The translations under genes and the position numbers were made by a program. From JBHIBR01 sp046759145 [NCBI: Nitrospinota bacterium] (GTDB lineage Bacteria; UBA8248), in assembly GCA_046759145.1 (NCBI GenBank), contig JBHIBR010000008.1:1-14515 (forward strand): 14,515 nt of DNA, written 5' to 3'. Positions 5,861 through 12,565 of the stretch are shown here, piece after piece. The notes under the pieces were generated by a model. That model saw only the letters and a program-made list of their open reading frames with translations. It did no database searches and had not been told where the DNA came from. Each line of letters begins with the position of its first letter. The first letter of the stretch is position 1.

Positions 5861-7942
5861 TTGAAGCGATACACCCTCAAGAGCCCGCGCCGGACTCCTT
5901 CCTACCGGGTGGACTATGACCGGGAGTTGAACGATCAGCAGCGCGCCGTGGTGATGGCGGGCGAGGGGCCCATCCTCGTCATCGCCGGCGCCGGCAGCGG
6001 CAAGACGCGCGCCCTGACCTACCGGGTGGGGCGTCTGATCGAGTCGGGGGAGCCTCCCGAAGGCATCCTCTTGCTCACTTTCACAAACAAGGCGGCCCGG
6101 GAGATGCTCCACCGGGTGGCGGCGCTTCTCCGGGGCGACGTCCGCCGCGTCTGGGGGGGGACTTTCCACCACACGGGAAACCTCATCCTCCGCCGCTTCG
6201 CCGCCCTGCTGGGCTTCCAGCCCACCTACACCATCCTCGACCGGGAGGACGCGGCCGAGCTCATCCAGAGCTGCGTGGCGGAATGCAGCCTGGGGGGAAG
6301 GGGGCGACGGTTCCCCCGGGGGACGGTGCTCCTCGAGCTCTTCAACTTCGCCTCGGACACGGAGACCACCCTGGAGGATGCCCTCCTCGCCCGCCAGCCC
6401 TACCACCTGGACCTCCTGGGCGAAATGGAGCGGGTTGCGGCCCGCTACCGGGAGCGGAAGCGGGCGCAGAACCTGATGGATTTCTCCGACCTCCTGAGCG
6501 GCTGGCGCACCTTGCTCCTCGAGCAACCCCCCGCCCGGCGGTGGCTCCAGGGGCGGTTCCGCCACATCCTGGTGGACGAGTACCAGGACACCAACCGCAT
6601 CCAGGGCGAGGTGGTGGACCTCATGGCCGAGGCGCACCGCAACCTCACCGTGGTCGGCGACGATGCCCAGAGCATCTACTCCTTCCGGGGCGCCCATTTC
6701 GCCAACATCATCGAGTTCCCCCGCCGCTACCCCGACTCCTCGGTCTTCCGCCTTGAGGCCAACTACCGGAGCGTCCCGCCCATCCTCGAGCTCGCCAACG
6801 CCGCCATCGCCCCCAACCGTCGCCAGTTCCCCAAGCGGCTCGTCCCCATACGCCAGGGGGGGGTGCGGCCCGTCCTGGTGCCCACCCGCGACGTGCTCCA
6901 GCAGGCGGACTTCGTCGCCCAGCGCGTCCTCGAGCTCCAGGATGAAGGCATCCCGCTGGGCGAGATGGCCGTCCTCTACCGTGCCCACTACCATTCCATG
7001 GAGCTCCAGATGGAGCTCACCCGGAGGGGGATACCCTTCGAGGTGCGCTCGGGCCTTCGCTTTTTTGAGCAGCGCCACATCAAAGACGTTACCGCCTACC
7101 TCCGCATCGCCACCAACCCCCAGGACGAGCTCGCGTGGAAGCGCACCCTGAAACTCCAACCGGGCATCGGAAACGCAGCCGCCGAGAGGGTGTGGCGCTT
7201 CGTGGCGGCCTCGGGGGACCCCTGCGGGGCGATCCGGAGGGGCGAGGCAGACCGGCTCTTTGGCCGGTCCGGCCGCCCGGGCTGGGAAGCCCACAAGCGG
7301 CTCCTGCTGGAGCTATGCGAGGAGCCTCTGCGGGGGCAACCGGCGGCCATGATCGAGAGGGCTCTGGAGGGGGGATACGAGGAATACCTCCAGCGCAACT
7401 TCCCGGACGCCTTCCAGAGGGCGGAAGACGTCCGCCAGCTCGCCCGCTTCGCCCTCCAGTACAGCTCGGCGGAAGCCCTCCTGAGCGAGCTCGCCCTGCT
7501 CGGCTCGGTGGGCTCCGAAGTGTTCGTCCCCGGCGAGGAGGGTCCCCCGGAGCGACTCATCCTCTCCACGGTCCACCAGGCCAAGGGGCTGGAGTGGAAG
7601 GAGCTCTTCCTCATCTGGCTCACCGAGGGCCGTTTCCCCTCTCCCCGGGCGCTTCGCGACCCGGAGGGGGAGGAAGAGGAGCGCCGCCTCTTCTACGTCG
7701 CCATCACCCGGGCCAAGGACGAGCTCTTTCTTTGCTATCCGCTGCTGGAGGCGGACACCCACCGGTCGGGTACTCTGGCCAAGCCCTCGAGGTTCCTTCA
7801 GGATATCCCGCCGGAGTGCTACGAGGTGTGGCAGCTCGATGAGGGGACGGGAGACCCCGAGGGCACACCCCCTGGCGCGGAGGGAAACACCGGGGGAAGG
7901 CCGGGGGAGCGGACCTATGACCACACCTTCTTCGAGGATTGA
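5861..7942 (+). CDS. UvrD/PcrA/Rep-family superfamily 1A DNA helicase
   Basis: The 693-residue protein is a complete 3'-5' helicase of the type used in repair and replication restart. Visible motifs: Q motif LNDQQRAVV (residues 23-31), Walker A AGAGSGKT (42-49), motif Ia TFTNKAA, Walker B ILVDEYQDTN (236-245), motif III VVGDDAQSIYSFRGA (264-278), motif IV NYRS, motif V TVHQAKGLEW (around His572) and motif VI FYVAITRAKDE (around Tyr612). The segment GTFHHTGNLILRR replaces the common GTFHSFCARILR, which suggests a UvrD-like side branch rather than classical UvrD. The C-terminal 40 residues are low-complexity and Gly/Pro/Glu-rich. The TTG start follows GGGGGG by six bases; upstream the frame is open only to 5813 and has no ATG. 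The downstream riboflavin kinase gene begins within about 50 bases or overlaps the end, consistent with an operon. Confidence 0.93.
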   Translation: MKRYTLKSPRRTPSYRVDYDRELNDQQRAVVMAGEGPILVIAGAGSGKTRALTYRVGRLIESGEPPEGILLLTFTNKAAREMLHRVAALLRGDVRRVWGGTFHHTGNLILRRFAALLGFQPTYTILDREDAAELIQSCVAECSLGGRGRRFPRGTVLLELFNFASDTETTLEDALLARQPYHLDLLGEMERVAARYRERKRAQNLMDFSDLLSGWRTLLLEQPPARRWLQGRFRHILVDEYQDTNRIQGEVVDLMAEAHRNLTVVGDDAQSIYSFRGAHFANIIEFPRRYPDSSVFRLEANYRSVPPILELANAAIAPNRRQFPKRLVPIRQGGVRPVLVPTRDVLQQADFVAQRVLELQDEGIPLGEMAVLYRAHYHSMELQMELTRRGIPFEVRSGLRFFEQRHIKDVTAYLRIATNPQDELAWKRTLKLQPGIGNAAAERVWRFVAASGDPCGAIRRGEADRLFGRSGRPGWEAHKRLLLELCEEPLRGQPAAMIERALEGGYEEYLQRNFPDAFQRAEDVRQLARFALQYSSAEALLSELALLGSVGSEVFVPGEEGPPERLILSTVHQAKGLEWKELFLIWLTEGRFPSPRALRDPEGEEEERRLFYVAITRAKDELFLCYPLLEADTHRSGTLAKPSRFLQDIPPECYEVWQLDEGTGDPEGTPPGAEGNTGGRPGERTYDHTFFED

Positions 7943-7991
7943 AGGGCCCGCGTGGGGAGGGGAATGCCCTCCGTGGCCCCCCAAGGAGGGC

Positions 7992-8450
7992 ATGACCCCC
8001 ATCGAGCTCCGGGGCCAGGTCTTTTCGGGGAAAGGGGAGGGGGCCCGCTTCACCCAGTTGGATTGGTTCCAGGAATCGCTCGAGCGCCTGGTGGGTTTCC
8101 GCCCCTACCCCGGGACGCTGAACCTGCGCCTTCGGGACCGGGGGTCGATCGGCCGCCTCGCCATGCTGCGAGACGGCCGGGGCCTTTGCGTCCTTCCCCC
8201 CAGCCCGGCTTTCTGTAAGGCCCTCCTTTTTCCGGCCGAGCTCAAGGCGCGCGGCCGCGCGGCCCTCATCATCCCCCTCGTGCCGGGCTACCCGGGCGAC
8301 GTGCTGGAGCTGGTGGCGGCCGTCCCCCTCAGGGAGTCCCTGGGCCTGGAAGATGGCGCCTGGTTGCGCATCCGGGCCTGGGCGAAGGGACCCCTCCCTC
8401 CCGCCGAGCCGGAGGTCGGCATTGCGCGGGAATCCCCGGCCGGAGGATAG
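7992..8450 (+). CDS. ribK: CTP-dependent riboflavin kinase, archaeal RibK type (DUF120)
   Basis: The 152-residue product matches the DUF120 family over nearly its whole length: LRGQVFSGKGEGARF at the N-terminus, GFRPYPGTLNLRL (Thr42 and Asn44 correspond to the Mg-nucleotide ligands of archaeal RibK), then IIPLVPGYPGDVLEL and LRESLGLEDGAWLRI near the end. Characterised archaeal members make FMN from riboflavin using CTP instead of ATP; they resemble neither bacterial RibF nor eukaryotic kinases in sequence. The domain starts at the ATG at 7992, which has AAGGAGG only three bases upstream (tight spacing). An in-frame ATG at 7917, inside the helicase 3' end and with a better-spaced GGAG, would add 25 low-complexity residues. 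The gene overlaps the next by 29 bases. The domain call is strong; CTP use in this organism is inferred from the family. Confidence 0.85.
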   Translation: MTPIELRGQVFSGKGEGARFTQLDWFQESLERLVGFRPYPGTLNLRLRDRGSIGRLAMLRDGRGLCVLPPSPAFCKALLFPAELKARGRAALIIPLVPGYPGDVLELVAAVPLRESLGLEDGAWLRIRAWAKGPLPPAEPEVGIARESPAGG

Positions 8451-8874
8451 CGGCCTCTACCGCCTGCTCATCGAGCTGCGCCGCGAACGGCGCCTGAGGG
8501 TGGGCGCCCTGGGGCGGGCGACTTTTCCCGCGGGCTACTACCTCTACGTGGGCCGCGCCATGGTCCGCCTCCAGGCGAGGCTTGCCCGCCATCTCCGGAG
8601 GCGAAAGCCCCTCCGCTGGCACGTAGACTACCTCCTCGCCCGTGGAAGGGCCGTCCGGGTAGAGGTGCGGCGGGGATCCCGCCCCGAGGAGGAGTGCAGG
8701 GAGGCCCGAAGATGGGCCCGGCTCTCGCGGGGCCGGATCCCTCTCCCTGGTTTTGGCTCCTCCGACTGCCATTGCCCCGCTCACCTCTTCTACCTGGGGC
8801 CCGGATGCCCTGCGAGCCTCGGCGGAAGGCGGTGGGAGGGAGTGGAGGGGAGAACCTTTCTCAGGCGGGCATGA
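8422..8874 (+). CDS. DUF123 GIY-YIG-like domain protein
   Basis: The 150-residue protein has the DUF123 pattern: SGLYRLLIEL (residues 10-19), VGALG, FPAGYYLYVGRAM (35-47, the YIG-like strand), RLARHLRRRK (53-62), RWHVDYLL (65-72), an EEECREA stretch and PGFGSSDCHCPAHLFYL (109-125) with paired cysteines. The family is related to GIY-YIG nucleases; most members are archaeal and have no proven function. The TTG at 8422 is chosen because GGAGGT lies five bases upstream; an ATG at 8353 is in frame but would overlap ribK by almost 100 bases. The 29-base overlap with ribK indicates coupled expression. The C-terminal 25 residues, beyond the domain, run 14 bases into the end of the convergent E2 gene. 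Confidence 0.85.
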   Translation: MRGNPRPEDSGLYRLLIELRRERRLRVGALGRATFPAGYYLYVGRAMVRLQARLARHLRRRKPLRWHVDYLLARGRAVRVEVRRGSRPEEECREARRWARLSRGRIPLPGFGSSDCHCPAHLFYLGPGCPASLGGRRWEGVEGRTFLRRA

Positions 8875-10103
8875 CCTTGGGGTGCTCGAGCATGCTCTTC
8901 AGGATCTGGAGGAACTCGGCCGCCGGGGCACCGTCGACCAGCCGGTGGTCGAAGTTGAGGCTCACATACATGGTGGTGCGAACGGCGAGCTGGCCCTCCA
9001 CCACCGCGGGCCGGGGGGCGGCGCGCCCCACCGAGAGGATGGCGCTCTCGGGGGGGTTCACGATGGCGCTGAAGAAGTCGATGCCATAGGCCCCCCAGGT
9101 TGGTGAGGGTGAAGGTCCCCCCCTCGAGCGCGCTGAGGGGGAGCTTCCCCGTCCGGGCTTGCTCGGCCAGGGAGGCGCTCTCGCGGGCGATCTGGTCAAT
9201 GCTCTTCTGGTCGGCACCGCGGATGACGGGCACCAAGAGTCCTCCCGGGACGGCCACGGCGATGCCCAGGTGGATGTCGCTCAGGATGTGGATCTCCTCG
9301 CCCACCAGGCGGGCGTTCACGTCCGGGTAACGCCGGATGGCGCGGGCGGTGTAGAAGGCGATGAGGTCGCTCACGGTCACGCGCACCCCCAGGTCCGTCT
9401 CCCAGGCCTGACGGCTTGCCTCCCGGACGGCCAGGAGGTTGGTGAGGTCCACCTCCACCGTCTCCGTCACCCGCGCCACCTGCGCCCAACTCTGGGCCAT
9501 CCGCTGGAAGATCACCTTCCGCATGCCCGCCAGGGGCACCCGCTTCAATACCGCCCCCGGCGCGACGACTGGCGCGGCGGGAGGGGAGGGAGCGGGGGCG
9601 GGGGCGCGGGCGGCGGCCGCCCGGATGTCCGCCTCGACGATCCGTCCGCCGGGCCCCGTGCCCCGGATGTGCGTATAGCCCACGCCCAGCTCCCGGGCCA
9701 CCCGGCGGGCTGCGGGCGAGATCTTGATGCGTTCATCCACCCTGCCGGGCGGGGGCCCAGGAGGCCTCTCGGGCGGGGCAGGGGCGGCCACCTCGGCCTT
9801 CTCAGCCGCCGGGGGAGGAGCGCCGCCGTCTGTGGGCTCGAATTGGGCGAATTCGATCTCCTCTGCGGGCTCGCCGATGACGCCCATGGCCCCGCCGCAA
9901 GGGACGGCCTGGCCCTCGCTCGCCCACGCCTTGCGGATCACACCCGAGGCGGGCGCCTCCAGGTCGTATTCCACCTTGTCGGTCTGGATCTGGAGGAGGA
10001 CCTCCCCCTTCCGGACGGGCTCCCCCTCCTTCTTGAGCCACTTGAGGACGGTCCCCTCCTCCATGGTGAGGCCCAGCTTCGGCATGAGGATGGGAGTGGC
10101 CAT
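8861..10103 (-). CDS. pdhC: Dihydrolipoamide acyltransferase E2 of a 2-oxoacid dehydrogenase complex, with apparent frameshift
   Basis: E2 transfers the acyl group (acetyl, if pyruvate dehydrogenase) from lipoamide to CoA and forms the core of the complex. One lipoyl domain occupies residues 1-77, with lipoylated Lys43 in QTDKVEYDLE. An Ala/Pro linker, an E1/E3-binding domain (about 125-162, KISPAARRVARELGV) and the catalytic domain (from about 185) follow. The reading frame breaks near residue 336 at TFTLTNLGG. The next frame continues correctly as AYGIDFFSAIVNPPES through the active-site DHRLVDGAPAAEF to a stop at 8861. Removing one base from the six-base run at 9091-9096 restores a 413-residue protein of normal length. 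Without that, translation runs on to 8790 and lacks the catalytic His. It is the third gene of the operon, 21 bases after pdhB. A single-base sequencing error is the simplest explanation. Confidence 0.9.
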
Positions 10104-12489: not shown

Positions 12490-12565
12490 GGCGGTGTAGC
12501 TCAGCGGTCAGAGCATGCGGCTCATATCCGCAGTGTCGGGGGTTCGAATCCCTCCACCGCCACCA
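12490..12565 (+). tRNA. tRNA with anticodon CAT (elongator Met favoured; Ile2 not excluded)
   Basis: The 76-base gene folds fully: a seven-pair acceptor stem GGCGGTG/CACCGCC, a D stem GCTC/GAGC, an anticodon stem TGCGG/CCGCA around loop CTCATAT, a five-base variable loop and a T stem GGGGG/CCCTC (one G-T pair) with loop TTCGAAT. The discriminator is A and CCA is encoded. The first acceptor pair is normal G-C, so it is not initiator tRNA. The acceptor stem and the variable/T region resemble bacterial elongator tRNA-Met. A CAT anticodon can also be tRNA-Ile2, the substrate of TilS, whose gene is 67 bases downstream, so the isotype needs a model comparison. Confidence 0.95.

What the first reader, a model, noticed from the sequence alone, without database searches (positions are those of the whole stretch)
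7992..8874. Overlapping pair of archaeal-type genes (CTP-dependent riboflavin kinase and DUF123) behind a bacterial helicase
DUF120 riboflavin kinase and DUF123 GIY-YIG-like proteins are both families known mainly from archaea. Here they overlap by 29 bases in a clearly bacterial chromosome. RibK keeps the PGTLN metal/nucleotide motif and DUF123 keeps the GYYLYVG and SDCHC blocks, so both look functional. They may have been acquired together, or may be an old bacterial lineage of these families. If RibK is active, the organism may make FMN with CTP, possibly alongside or instead of RibF.
Basis: partly seen in the sequence, partly recalled or inferred. Interest (0 to 1): 0.6.

Follow-up and report, generated by a model that had tools for sequence, protein, structure and literature searches.

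The report
Bacterial CTP-type riboflavin kinase beside DUF123
A bacterium carries a small enzyme gene of a kind known mainly from archaea, probably making a vitamin B2 cofactor; some of its bacterial relatives sit with genes for a rare modified form of that cofactor, while the neighbouring DUF123 gene looks ordinary.

Summary
The two overlapping genes are real: RibK 7992-8450 (PF01982, 90 bits) and DUF123 8422-8874 (PF01986, 75 bits), overlap 29 bases. The archaeal reading holds only in part. DUF123 is common in bacteria (41 of 251 Chloroflexota genomes; Thermotoga maritima). RibK is rare (7 of 400 Chloroflexota), but the window protein groups with seven bacterial RibKs apart from six archaeal ones (support 100/98) and shares three signatures with them; an AU test still does not exclude an archaeal placement (p 0.28). 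The RibK-DUF123 pair was seen nowhere else. All 7 RibK-bearing Chloroflexota genomes also have RibF; the window's genome is not held. Unexpected link: bacterial-type RibK adjoins UbiX (prenyl-FMN synthase) in 3 of 8 loci, in three orientations, and a PPOX-type gene in 3 more; all 6 Chloroflexota genomes with it are among the 14 of 251 with at least 5 UbiD genes. Luciferase-type flavoenzymes show no such trend. Best reading: an accessory FMN-forming kinase of a bacterial clade, tied to prenyl-FMN demand in some lineages. The window shows no UbiX or UbiD, so for this locus that last step is inference.

The parts
7992..8450 (+). ribK-like gene, PF01982 CTP-dependent riboflavin kinase family, bacterial type (152 aa)
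   Evidence: 90 bits; alignment; tree
7983..7989 (+). AAGGAGG, possible ribosome-binding site for ribK; spacing to the ATG only 2 nt
   Evidence: read from sequence
8422..8874 (+). DUF123 (PF01986) gene, TTG start, 150 aa; GIY-YIG-like by recall
   Evidence: 75.4 bits; alignment with 6 Chloroflexota homologues
8411..8415 (+). GGAGG, likely ribosome-binding site of DUF123 inside the end of ribK
   Evidence: read from sequence
8422..8450 (+). 29-base overlap of the two genes
5861..7942 (+). UvrD/PcrA-like helicase upstream on the same strand, 49 bases before ribK

Best explanation
The window holds a true bacterial member of the CTP-dependent riboflavin kinase family. It belongs, most likely, to a bacterial clade that differs from the archaeal housekeeping RibK. 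Most likely it phosphorylates riboflavin to FMN without going on to FAD, as an extra FMN source beside the usual bifunctional RibF. In some other lineages the clade seems tied to prenyl-FMN cofactor supply: UbiX makes prenyl-FMN from FMN and dimethylallyl phosphate, and UbiD enzymes use it. DUF123, translated from inside the end of ribK, is an ordinary bacterial protein (GIY-YIG-like by recall) without a shown functional link. Shown here: family, motifs, tree position, co-occurrence with RibF in relatives, UbiX adjacency and UbiD enrichment in relatives. Inferred: the reaction, the use of CTP, the presence of RibF in the window's organism, and any prenyl-FMN role in the window's organism.
For: Family and motifs. 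Bacterial side of the tree, 8 rows against 6, support 100/98. By eye on the alignment, the FT..W, C and YP signatures are in 8 of 8 bacterial rows, the window included, and in 0 of 6 archaeal rows. tblastn identity of the window RibK to the 7 bacterial homologues is 35-42%, to the 5 haloarchaeal ones 29-33%; to the two archaeal PDB sequences 28-29%. RibF in 7 of 7 RibK-bearing Chloroflexota genomes. UbiX is the immediate neighbour in 3 of 8 bacterial-type loci: Azoarcus plasmid, same strand with a 4-base overlap; G014/L011, tail to tail; G001/L016, divergent (TIGR00421 at 233 and 238 bits). By chance at least 2 of the 6 Chloroflexota cases has p about 5e-6, assuming one gene per kb and one UbiX per genome. 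UbiD: all 6 bacterial-type RibK genomes lie in the 14 of 251 with at least 5 UbiD, Fisher 9e-9; exact counts 5, 35, 10, 35, 24, 35. Over the 20 genomes UbiD counts differ (p 0.006) and luciferase-type flavoenzymes do not (p 0.65). Three further loci (L012, L013, L014) have a PPOX-type gene directly after ribK.
Against: No UbiX or UbiD among the 11 translated window pieces (10 genes) that I scanned with Pfam. The AU test does not reject the window RibK joining the archaeal rows (p 0.276; 0.239). With two long branches added, the bacterial group is no longer pure: a RibK-HAD protein of Natrinema falls with it. The UbiD cut of 5 was chosen after seeing the counts; with a cut of 10 it is 5 of 10 against 1 of 241 (p 2e-7). 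The genomes are related, so p values overstate. 8 of the 14 UbiD-rich genomes lack RibK, two of them with 24 UbiD each (G048, G162). UbiX is not adjacent in 4 of 6 Chloroflexota genomes. One Chloroflexota RibK (G170) is archaeal-like, sits in a genome with 1 UbiD and is on another contig than UbiX. NCBIfam's RibK equivalogs are missed by far (60.3 against a cut-off of 168). The window organism could not be named.
Confidence: 0.6

Rival explanations
1. The kinase has changed its substrate: it phosphorylates something in the prenyl-FMN route other than riboflavin, for instance prenylated riboflavin in salvage, or prenol to give dimethylallyl phosphate for UbiX.
For: RibF is already present in 7 of 7 relatives, so FMN supply alone is redundant; UbiX adjacency in 3 of 8 loci; the FT..W, C and YP signatures differ from archaeal RibK (alignment).
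Against: The GxG and PGTLN blocks of the family are kept. In the Azoarcus operon a NUDIX gene follows ribK; E. coli NUDIX enzymes make dimethylallyl phosphate (PMC12359138, passages read), so that substrate may already be covered there.
Confidence: 0.2
2. Recent joint transfer of ribK and DUF123 from an archaeon.
For: Both families are known from archaea (controls); the genes overlap; the AU test does not exclude an archaeal placement of RibK (p 0.276).
Against: DUF123 is widespread in Chloroflexota; RibK groups with bacterial sequences and shares their signatures; nearest identities are bacterial; DUF123 was not found in any other RibK locus held, archaeal plasmid loci included (flanks there only 2-3 kb).
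Confidence: 0.1
3. RibK replaces RibF as the riboflavin kinase in the window's organism.
For: The window's genome could not be searched, so RibF absence is not excluded.
Against: 7 of 7 RibK-bearing Chloroflexota genomes keep RibF; a replaced RibF would also need a separate FAD synthetase.
Confidence: 0.1

Closest known systems
MJ0056 riboflavin kinase (PF01982; PDB 2p3m, 2vbs, 2vbt, 2vbu, 2vbv)
   Same: Family, GxGEG and PGTLN blocks, length of the kinase domain
   Different: About 29% identity; window protein has the FT..W, C and YP signatures of the bacterial rows, which MJ0056 lacks (alignment)
Azoarcus sp. KH32C pAZKH DUF120 protein (WP_015451796.1)
   Same: Bacterial member, 38.6% identical, same side of the tree
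   Different: Sits in a phenylphosphate carboxylase / UbiD / UbiX / NUDIX operon; the window has no such neighbours
RbkR (HVO_0326 / TA1064), archaeal regulator plus riboflavin kinase
   Same: Kinase domain of the same family (passages of PMC8305020; that PDB 3cta is TA1064 is recalled)
   Different: The window protein shows no N-terminal DNA-binding domain in Pfam (match 10-127 of 152)
DUF123 / PF01986 proteins of Chloroflexota
   Same: GYYxYVG, ARxxRH, WHxDYLL, EC, GFGxSDCxC and HL blocks kept
   Different: Window has R in place of S in the YVGSAM stretch and R for H before WH; neighbour is ribK

Membership tests
PF01982 CTP-dependent riboflavin kinase | Profile match over curated cut-off | tested here: met
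   90 bits against 25
PF01982 CTP-dependent riboflavin kinase | GxGEG-type loop and PGTLN block (the Mg-binding role of T and N is recalled) | tested here: met
   G13, G15, G41, T42, N44 invariant in 11 aligned rows
PF01982 CTP-dependent riboflavin kinase | Cradle-loop barrel fold | tested here: inconclusive
   AlphaFold2 model from 2 sequences, mean pLDDT 43.5
PF01982 CTP-dependent riboflavin kinase | Riboflavin kinase activity with CTP | not testable with these tools
   needs enzyme assay
NCBIfam NF040694 ribK_Meth equivalog | Score over equivalog cut-off | tested here: not met
   60.3 against 168
PF01986 DUF123 | Profile match over curated cut-off | tested here: met
   75.4 bits against 25
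PF01986 DUF123 | Conserved blocks of the family | tested here: met
   alignment with 6 of 12 fetched Chloroflexota loci; the other 6 gave no ORF by my filter
PF01986 DUF123 | GIY-YIG fold and nuclease activity | tested here: inconclusive
   single-sequence model pLDDT 35; activity not testable
Bacterial RibK clade linked to prenyl-FMN | Groups with bacterial RibKs apart from archaeal ones | tested here: met
   100/98 and shared signatures, but AU test of the alternative p 0.276
Bacterial RibK clade linked to prenyl-FMN | UbiX or UbiD next to the gene | tested here: not met
   none among 11 translated pieces (10 genes) of the window scanned
Bacterial RibK clade linked to prenyl-FMN | UbiD-rich genome | not testable with these tools
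   no genome held for the window

The most novel reading that the evidence does not exclude
Bacteria possess their own clade of CTP-type riboflavin kinase, kept beside RibF as a dedicated feeder (of FMN, or of prenylated flavin by salvage) for the UbiX/UbiD prenyl-FMN system, with RibK-HAD fusions and RibK-PPOX pairs as further parts of the same cofactor route; the window gene is a member from a lineage that is probably outside Chloroflexota.
Probability: 0.35. Interest if true: 0.65.

Novelty: new variant of a known kind. Interest (0 to 1): 0.48.

Why it matters
If right, prenyl-FMN biosynthesis has an unrecognised FMN-supplying step in some UbiD-rich bacteria, and an 'archaeal' enzyme family has an old bacterial branch with a specialised job. 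That is directly testable by co-expression with UbiX and UbiD. It would also warn annotators that PF01982 in a bacterium does not mean that RibF is missing or that the gene came recently from archaea.

Tried and rejected
Naming the organism: no genome is held for the window. The one genome-contig scan returned a single relative, L001, a Chloroflexi MAG. The window MiaB is at most 43% identical in full-length matches in 22 Chloroflexota genomes; one genome, G220, gives only pieces, at 42-50%. I therefore think the window is not Chloroflexota, but this is not proven; the phylum stays unknown.

Viral RibK: 30 IMG/VR loci (L034-L063) were reported as relatives of a Chloroflexota RibK. I looked for an ORF (start codon, 40 aa or more) under the match in 11 of the 30; only L055 gave one, and it lacks the GxG and PGTLN blocks. 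In the two loci whose ORFs I listed (L041, L057) the match runs antisense to a Lys/Arg-rich phage ORF. I reject them as spurious, having read 11 of 30. The window RibK itself found no relative in viral contigs or phage records, nor did the Azoarcus one in viral contigs.

Structure: AlphaFold2 models of RibK (pLDDT 43.5) and DUF123 (35.0) are too poor to use; no fold search was run.

General flavin demand instead of prenyl-FMN: luciferase-type flavoenzymes (PF00296) were counted in 22 genomes (counts in the three richest are limited to about 63) and compared over the 20 genomes; no difference.

Joint transfer of the pair: not supported by distribution. The database also took in some protein alignment rows by mistake (warnings in its output); none is among the hits printed. 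A UvrD relative on a viral-class contig (L064, 48%) ends at the contig edge and shows no synteny. DUF123 of the window has no match in plasmids and none in viral contigs.

Literature, all in the held open-access library only: 'DUF120'+'UbiX' 0 papers; three or more of riboflavin kinase, prenylated FMN, UbiX, operon: 9 papers, of which only PMC9597258 holds riboflavin kinase and UbiX together, seen in the listing only; 'DUF123'+'GIY-YIG' 0; one search listed 15 of 37; one paper; further searches. Passages were read in PMC4739770, PMC12359138, PMC8305020, PMC10865409 and PMC4508563, and abstract plus passages of PMC13040415. PubMed 28073944 (RbkR) is not held.

Full report
What is there. The window is a bacterial chromosome piece with lon (reverse), miaB, a bifunctional-nuclease-domain gene, a UvrD/PcrA-like helicase, ribK, DUF123, genes for 2-oxoacid dehydrogenase E2, E1 beta and E1 alpha (reverse), a tRNA with anticodon CAT and tilS. 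RibK runs 7992-8450 and DUF123 from a TTG at 8422 to 8874; they overlap by 29 bases, and a GGAGG six bases before the TTG lies inside ribK. PF01982 scores 90 bits and PF01986 75.4 bits, both over cut-offs of 25.

Are the genes intact? In an 11-row alignment of RibKs that includes the window and two solved archaeal ones, the glycines of the GxG loop and G, T and N of PGTLN are invariant. That T and N bind the metal is recalled, not from a call. The closest NCBIfam equivalogs are not reached (60.3 against 168 bits), so it is not a methanogen-type RibK at equivalog level. DUF123 keeps the GYYxYVG, ARxxRH, WHxDYLL, EC and SDCxC blocks against 6 Chloroflexota proteins, with an R for S and an R for H change (6 of 12 loci gave an ORF by my filter). 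That DUF123 is GIY-YIG-like is recalled. Structure models were too poor to use.

Archaeal or bacterial? DUF123 is found in 41 of 251 Chloroflexota genomes and, among the 14 control genomes, in Thermotoga maritima and three archaea; it is not an archaeal marker. RibK is rare in Chloroflexota: 7 of 251 and the same 7 of 400, while among the 14 controls only 4 archaea ring. One bacterial plasmid has it, Azoarcus sp. KH32C (6 records in all, 5 of them haloarchaeal). In a 14-row tree the window, six Chloroflexota proteins and Azoarcus form one side of a branch with support 100/98 against six archaeal rows. Three signatures, FT..W, C and YP, are in 8 of 8 bacterial rows, the window included, and in 0 of 6 archaeal rows (by eye, alignment). 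Adding two long rows leaves a 95/97 branch, but a Natrinema RibK-HAD fusion then falls with the bacterial rows, and the seventh Chloroflexota protein (L015, genome G170) with the archaeal ones. Forcing the window to join the archaeal rows is not rejected (p-AU 0.276; 0.239). So an old bacterial clade is the better reading, not a proof.

The pair. Of 7 RibK-bearing Chloroflexota genomes 2 also have DUF123 (G066 and G170), on different contigs from RibK. A tblastn of the window DUF123 over the loci held found it only in three loci fetched for DUF123, not in the other RibK loci (flanks of 2 to 8 kb, shorter where the contig ends). The overlap in the window suggests translational coupling, not a shared job.

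RibF. 7 of 7 RibK-bearing genomes have a flavokinase domain of RibF (PF01687), as do 5 of 6 others searched. In these genomes RibK is therefore an addition. The window's own genome cannot be searched.

The prenyl-FMN link. Eight bacterial-type loci are in hand: the window, Azoarcus and six Chloroflexota. In 3 of 8 ribK adjoins a UbiX gene: in Azoarcus on the same strand with a 4-base overlap, after phenylphosphate carboxylase and UbiD genes and before a NUDIX gene; in L011 (G014) tail to tail; in L016 (G001) divergent, where RibK is fused behind a HAD hydrolase domain. Both Chloroflexota UbiX genes pass the UbiX model's cut-off. G014 is the only genome of its class that is held, so it is not a near relative of G001. 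A ribBA-like gene (a DHBP synthase / GTP cyclohydrolase II reading by eye, not a profile search) lies nearby in L001. Three different orientations argue for repeated assembly. In 3 more of 8 (L012, L013, L014) a PPOX-type gene follows ribK, and in two of them a glyoxalase-type gene follows that. L010 and the window have neither. Chance adjacency to UbiX in at least 2 of 6 Chloroflexota genomes has p about 5e-6 under one gene per kb and one UbiX per genome.

UbiD counts. Exact counts in the six bacterial-type RibK genomes are 5, 35, 10, 35, 24 and 35; in G170, whose RibK is archaeal-like, 1; in 13 genomes without RibK 24, 0, 3, 1, 0, 24, 1, 10, 0, 5, 1, 7 and 5 (p 0.006 with G170 in the second group). 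Over 251 genomes, 14 have at least 5 UbiD and all 6 bacterial-type RibK genomes are among them; 8 of the 14 lack RibK (counts there stop at 11). Fisher p is 9e-9; with G170 counted as RibK-bearing 6e-8; with a cut of 10, 2e-7. The cut was set after seeing the data and the genomes are related, so these p values overstate. Each of the six has one UbiX over the model's cut-off. Luciferase-type flavoenzymes show no difference (0, 17, 1, 44, 39, 31 against 0 to 64; p 0.65), so the link is not plain flavin demand.

How it most likely works. UbiX prenylates FMN with dimethylallyl phosphate; the reaction mix in PMC10865409 (passage) uses both. PMC12359138 (passages) says that E. coli NUDIX enzymes make dimethylallyl phosphate. 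A monofunctional kinase would give FMN without turning it into FAD. An operon with UbiX, RibK and a NUDIX enzyme, as in Azoarcus, would then supply both substrates. PMC13040415 (abstract and passages) describes PhdC, a flavin-reductase-like maturase of prenyl-FMN; whether the PPOX-type neighbours do anything of that sort is my speculation: of the two that I compared with the PDB, one has no relative and the other has haem-binding or uncharacterised ones. For the window itself no UbiX or UbiD is visible, so only the accessory riboflavin kinase reading applies with some confidence.

Novelty. The searches of the held open-access library listed no paper that, by its title or abstract start, joins DUF120 or riboflavin kinase with UbiX or prenyl-FMN (one search listed 15 of 37); subscription papers are mostly missing. 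I rate it a new variant of a known kind: a known enzyme family in a bacterial clade with an association that I did not find in print. The window locus alone would rate lower.

Noticed in passing
window 8861-10103 (minus), break near 9091-9096: The E2 acyltransferase gene is split by a frameshift at a run of six G: the catalytic domain is covered to profile position 157 in one frame and from 156 in another. Sequencing error or real break cannot be told.
   Followed up: partly
window 12490-12565 (+): A tRNA with anticodon CAT lies directly upstream of tilS (12633), whose product modifies CAU-anticodon tRNA-Ile (recalled). Whether this is tRNA-Met or tRNA-Ile2 was not tested; ARAGORN says Met.
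   Followed up: no
L016 6271-7383 (minus) and L032 1995-2918 (+): RibK is fused to a HAD hydrolase in both orders: HAD-RibK in a Chloroflexi MAG (Pfam) and RibK-HAD in the haloarchaeon Natrinema gelatinilyticum (HAD by eye from the DxDGT motif). A HAD partner would fit the phosphatase step before riboflavin.
   Followed up: partly
G014, G039, G178, G066, G048, G162, G114: Some Chloroflexota genomes carry 24 to 35 UbiD-domain genes (6 genomes) with a single UbiX over the model's cut-off in five of them and none over it in G162. G114 has 43 first-look UbiD candidates, 11 scored.
   Followed up: partly
L012, L013, L014: A ribK / PPOX-type gene order recurs, with a glyoxalase-type gene after it in L012 and L013.
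   Followed up: partly
L015 7516-8366 (minus): The archaeal-like RibK of Chloroflexota genome G170 directly precedes a TrmO-type tRNA methyltransferase gene, with ends overlapping by 4 bases.
   Followed up: no
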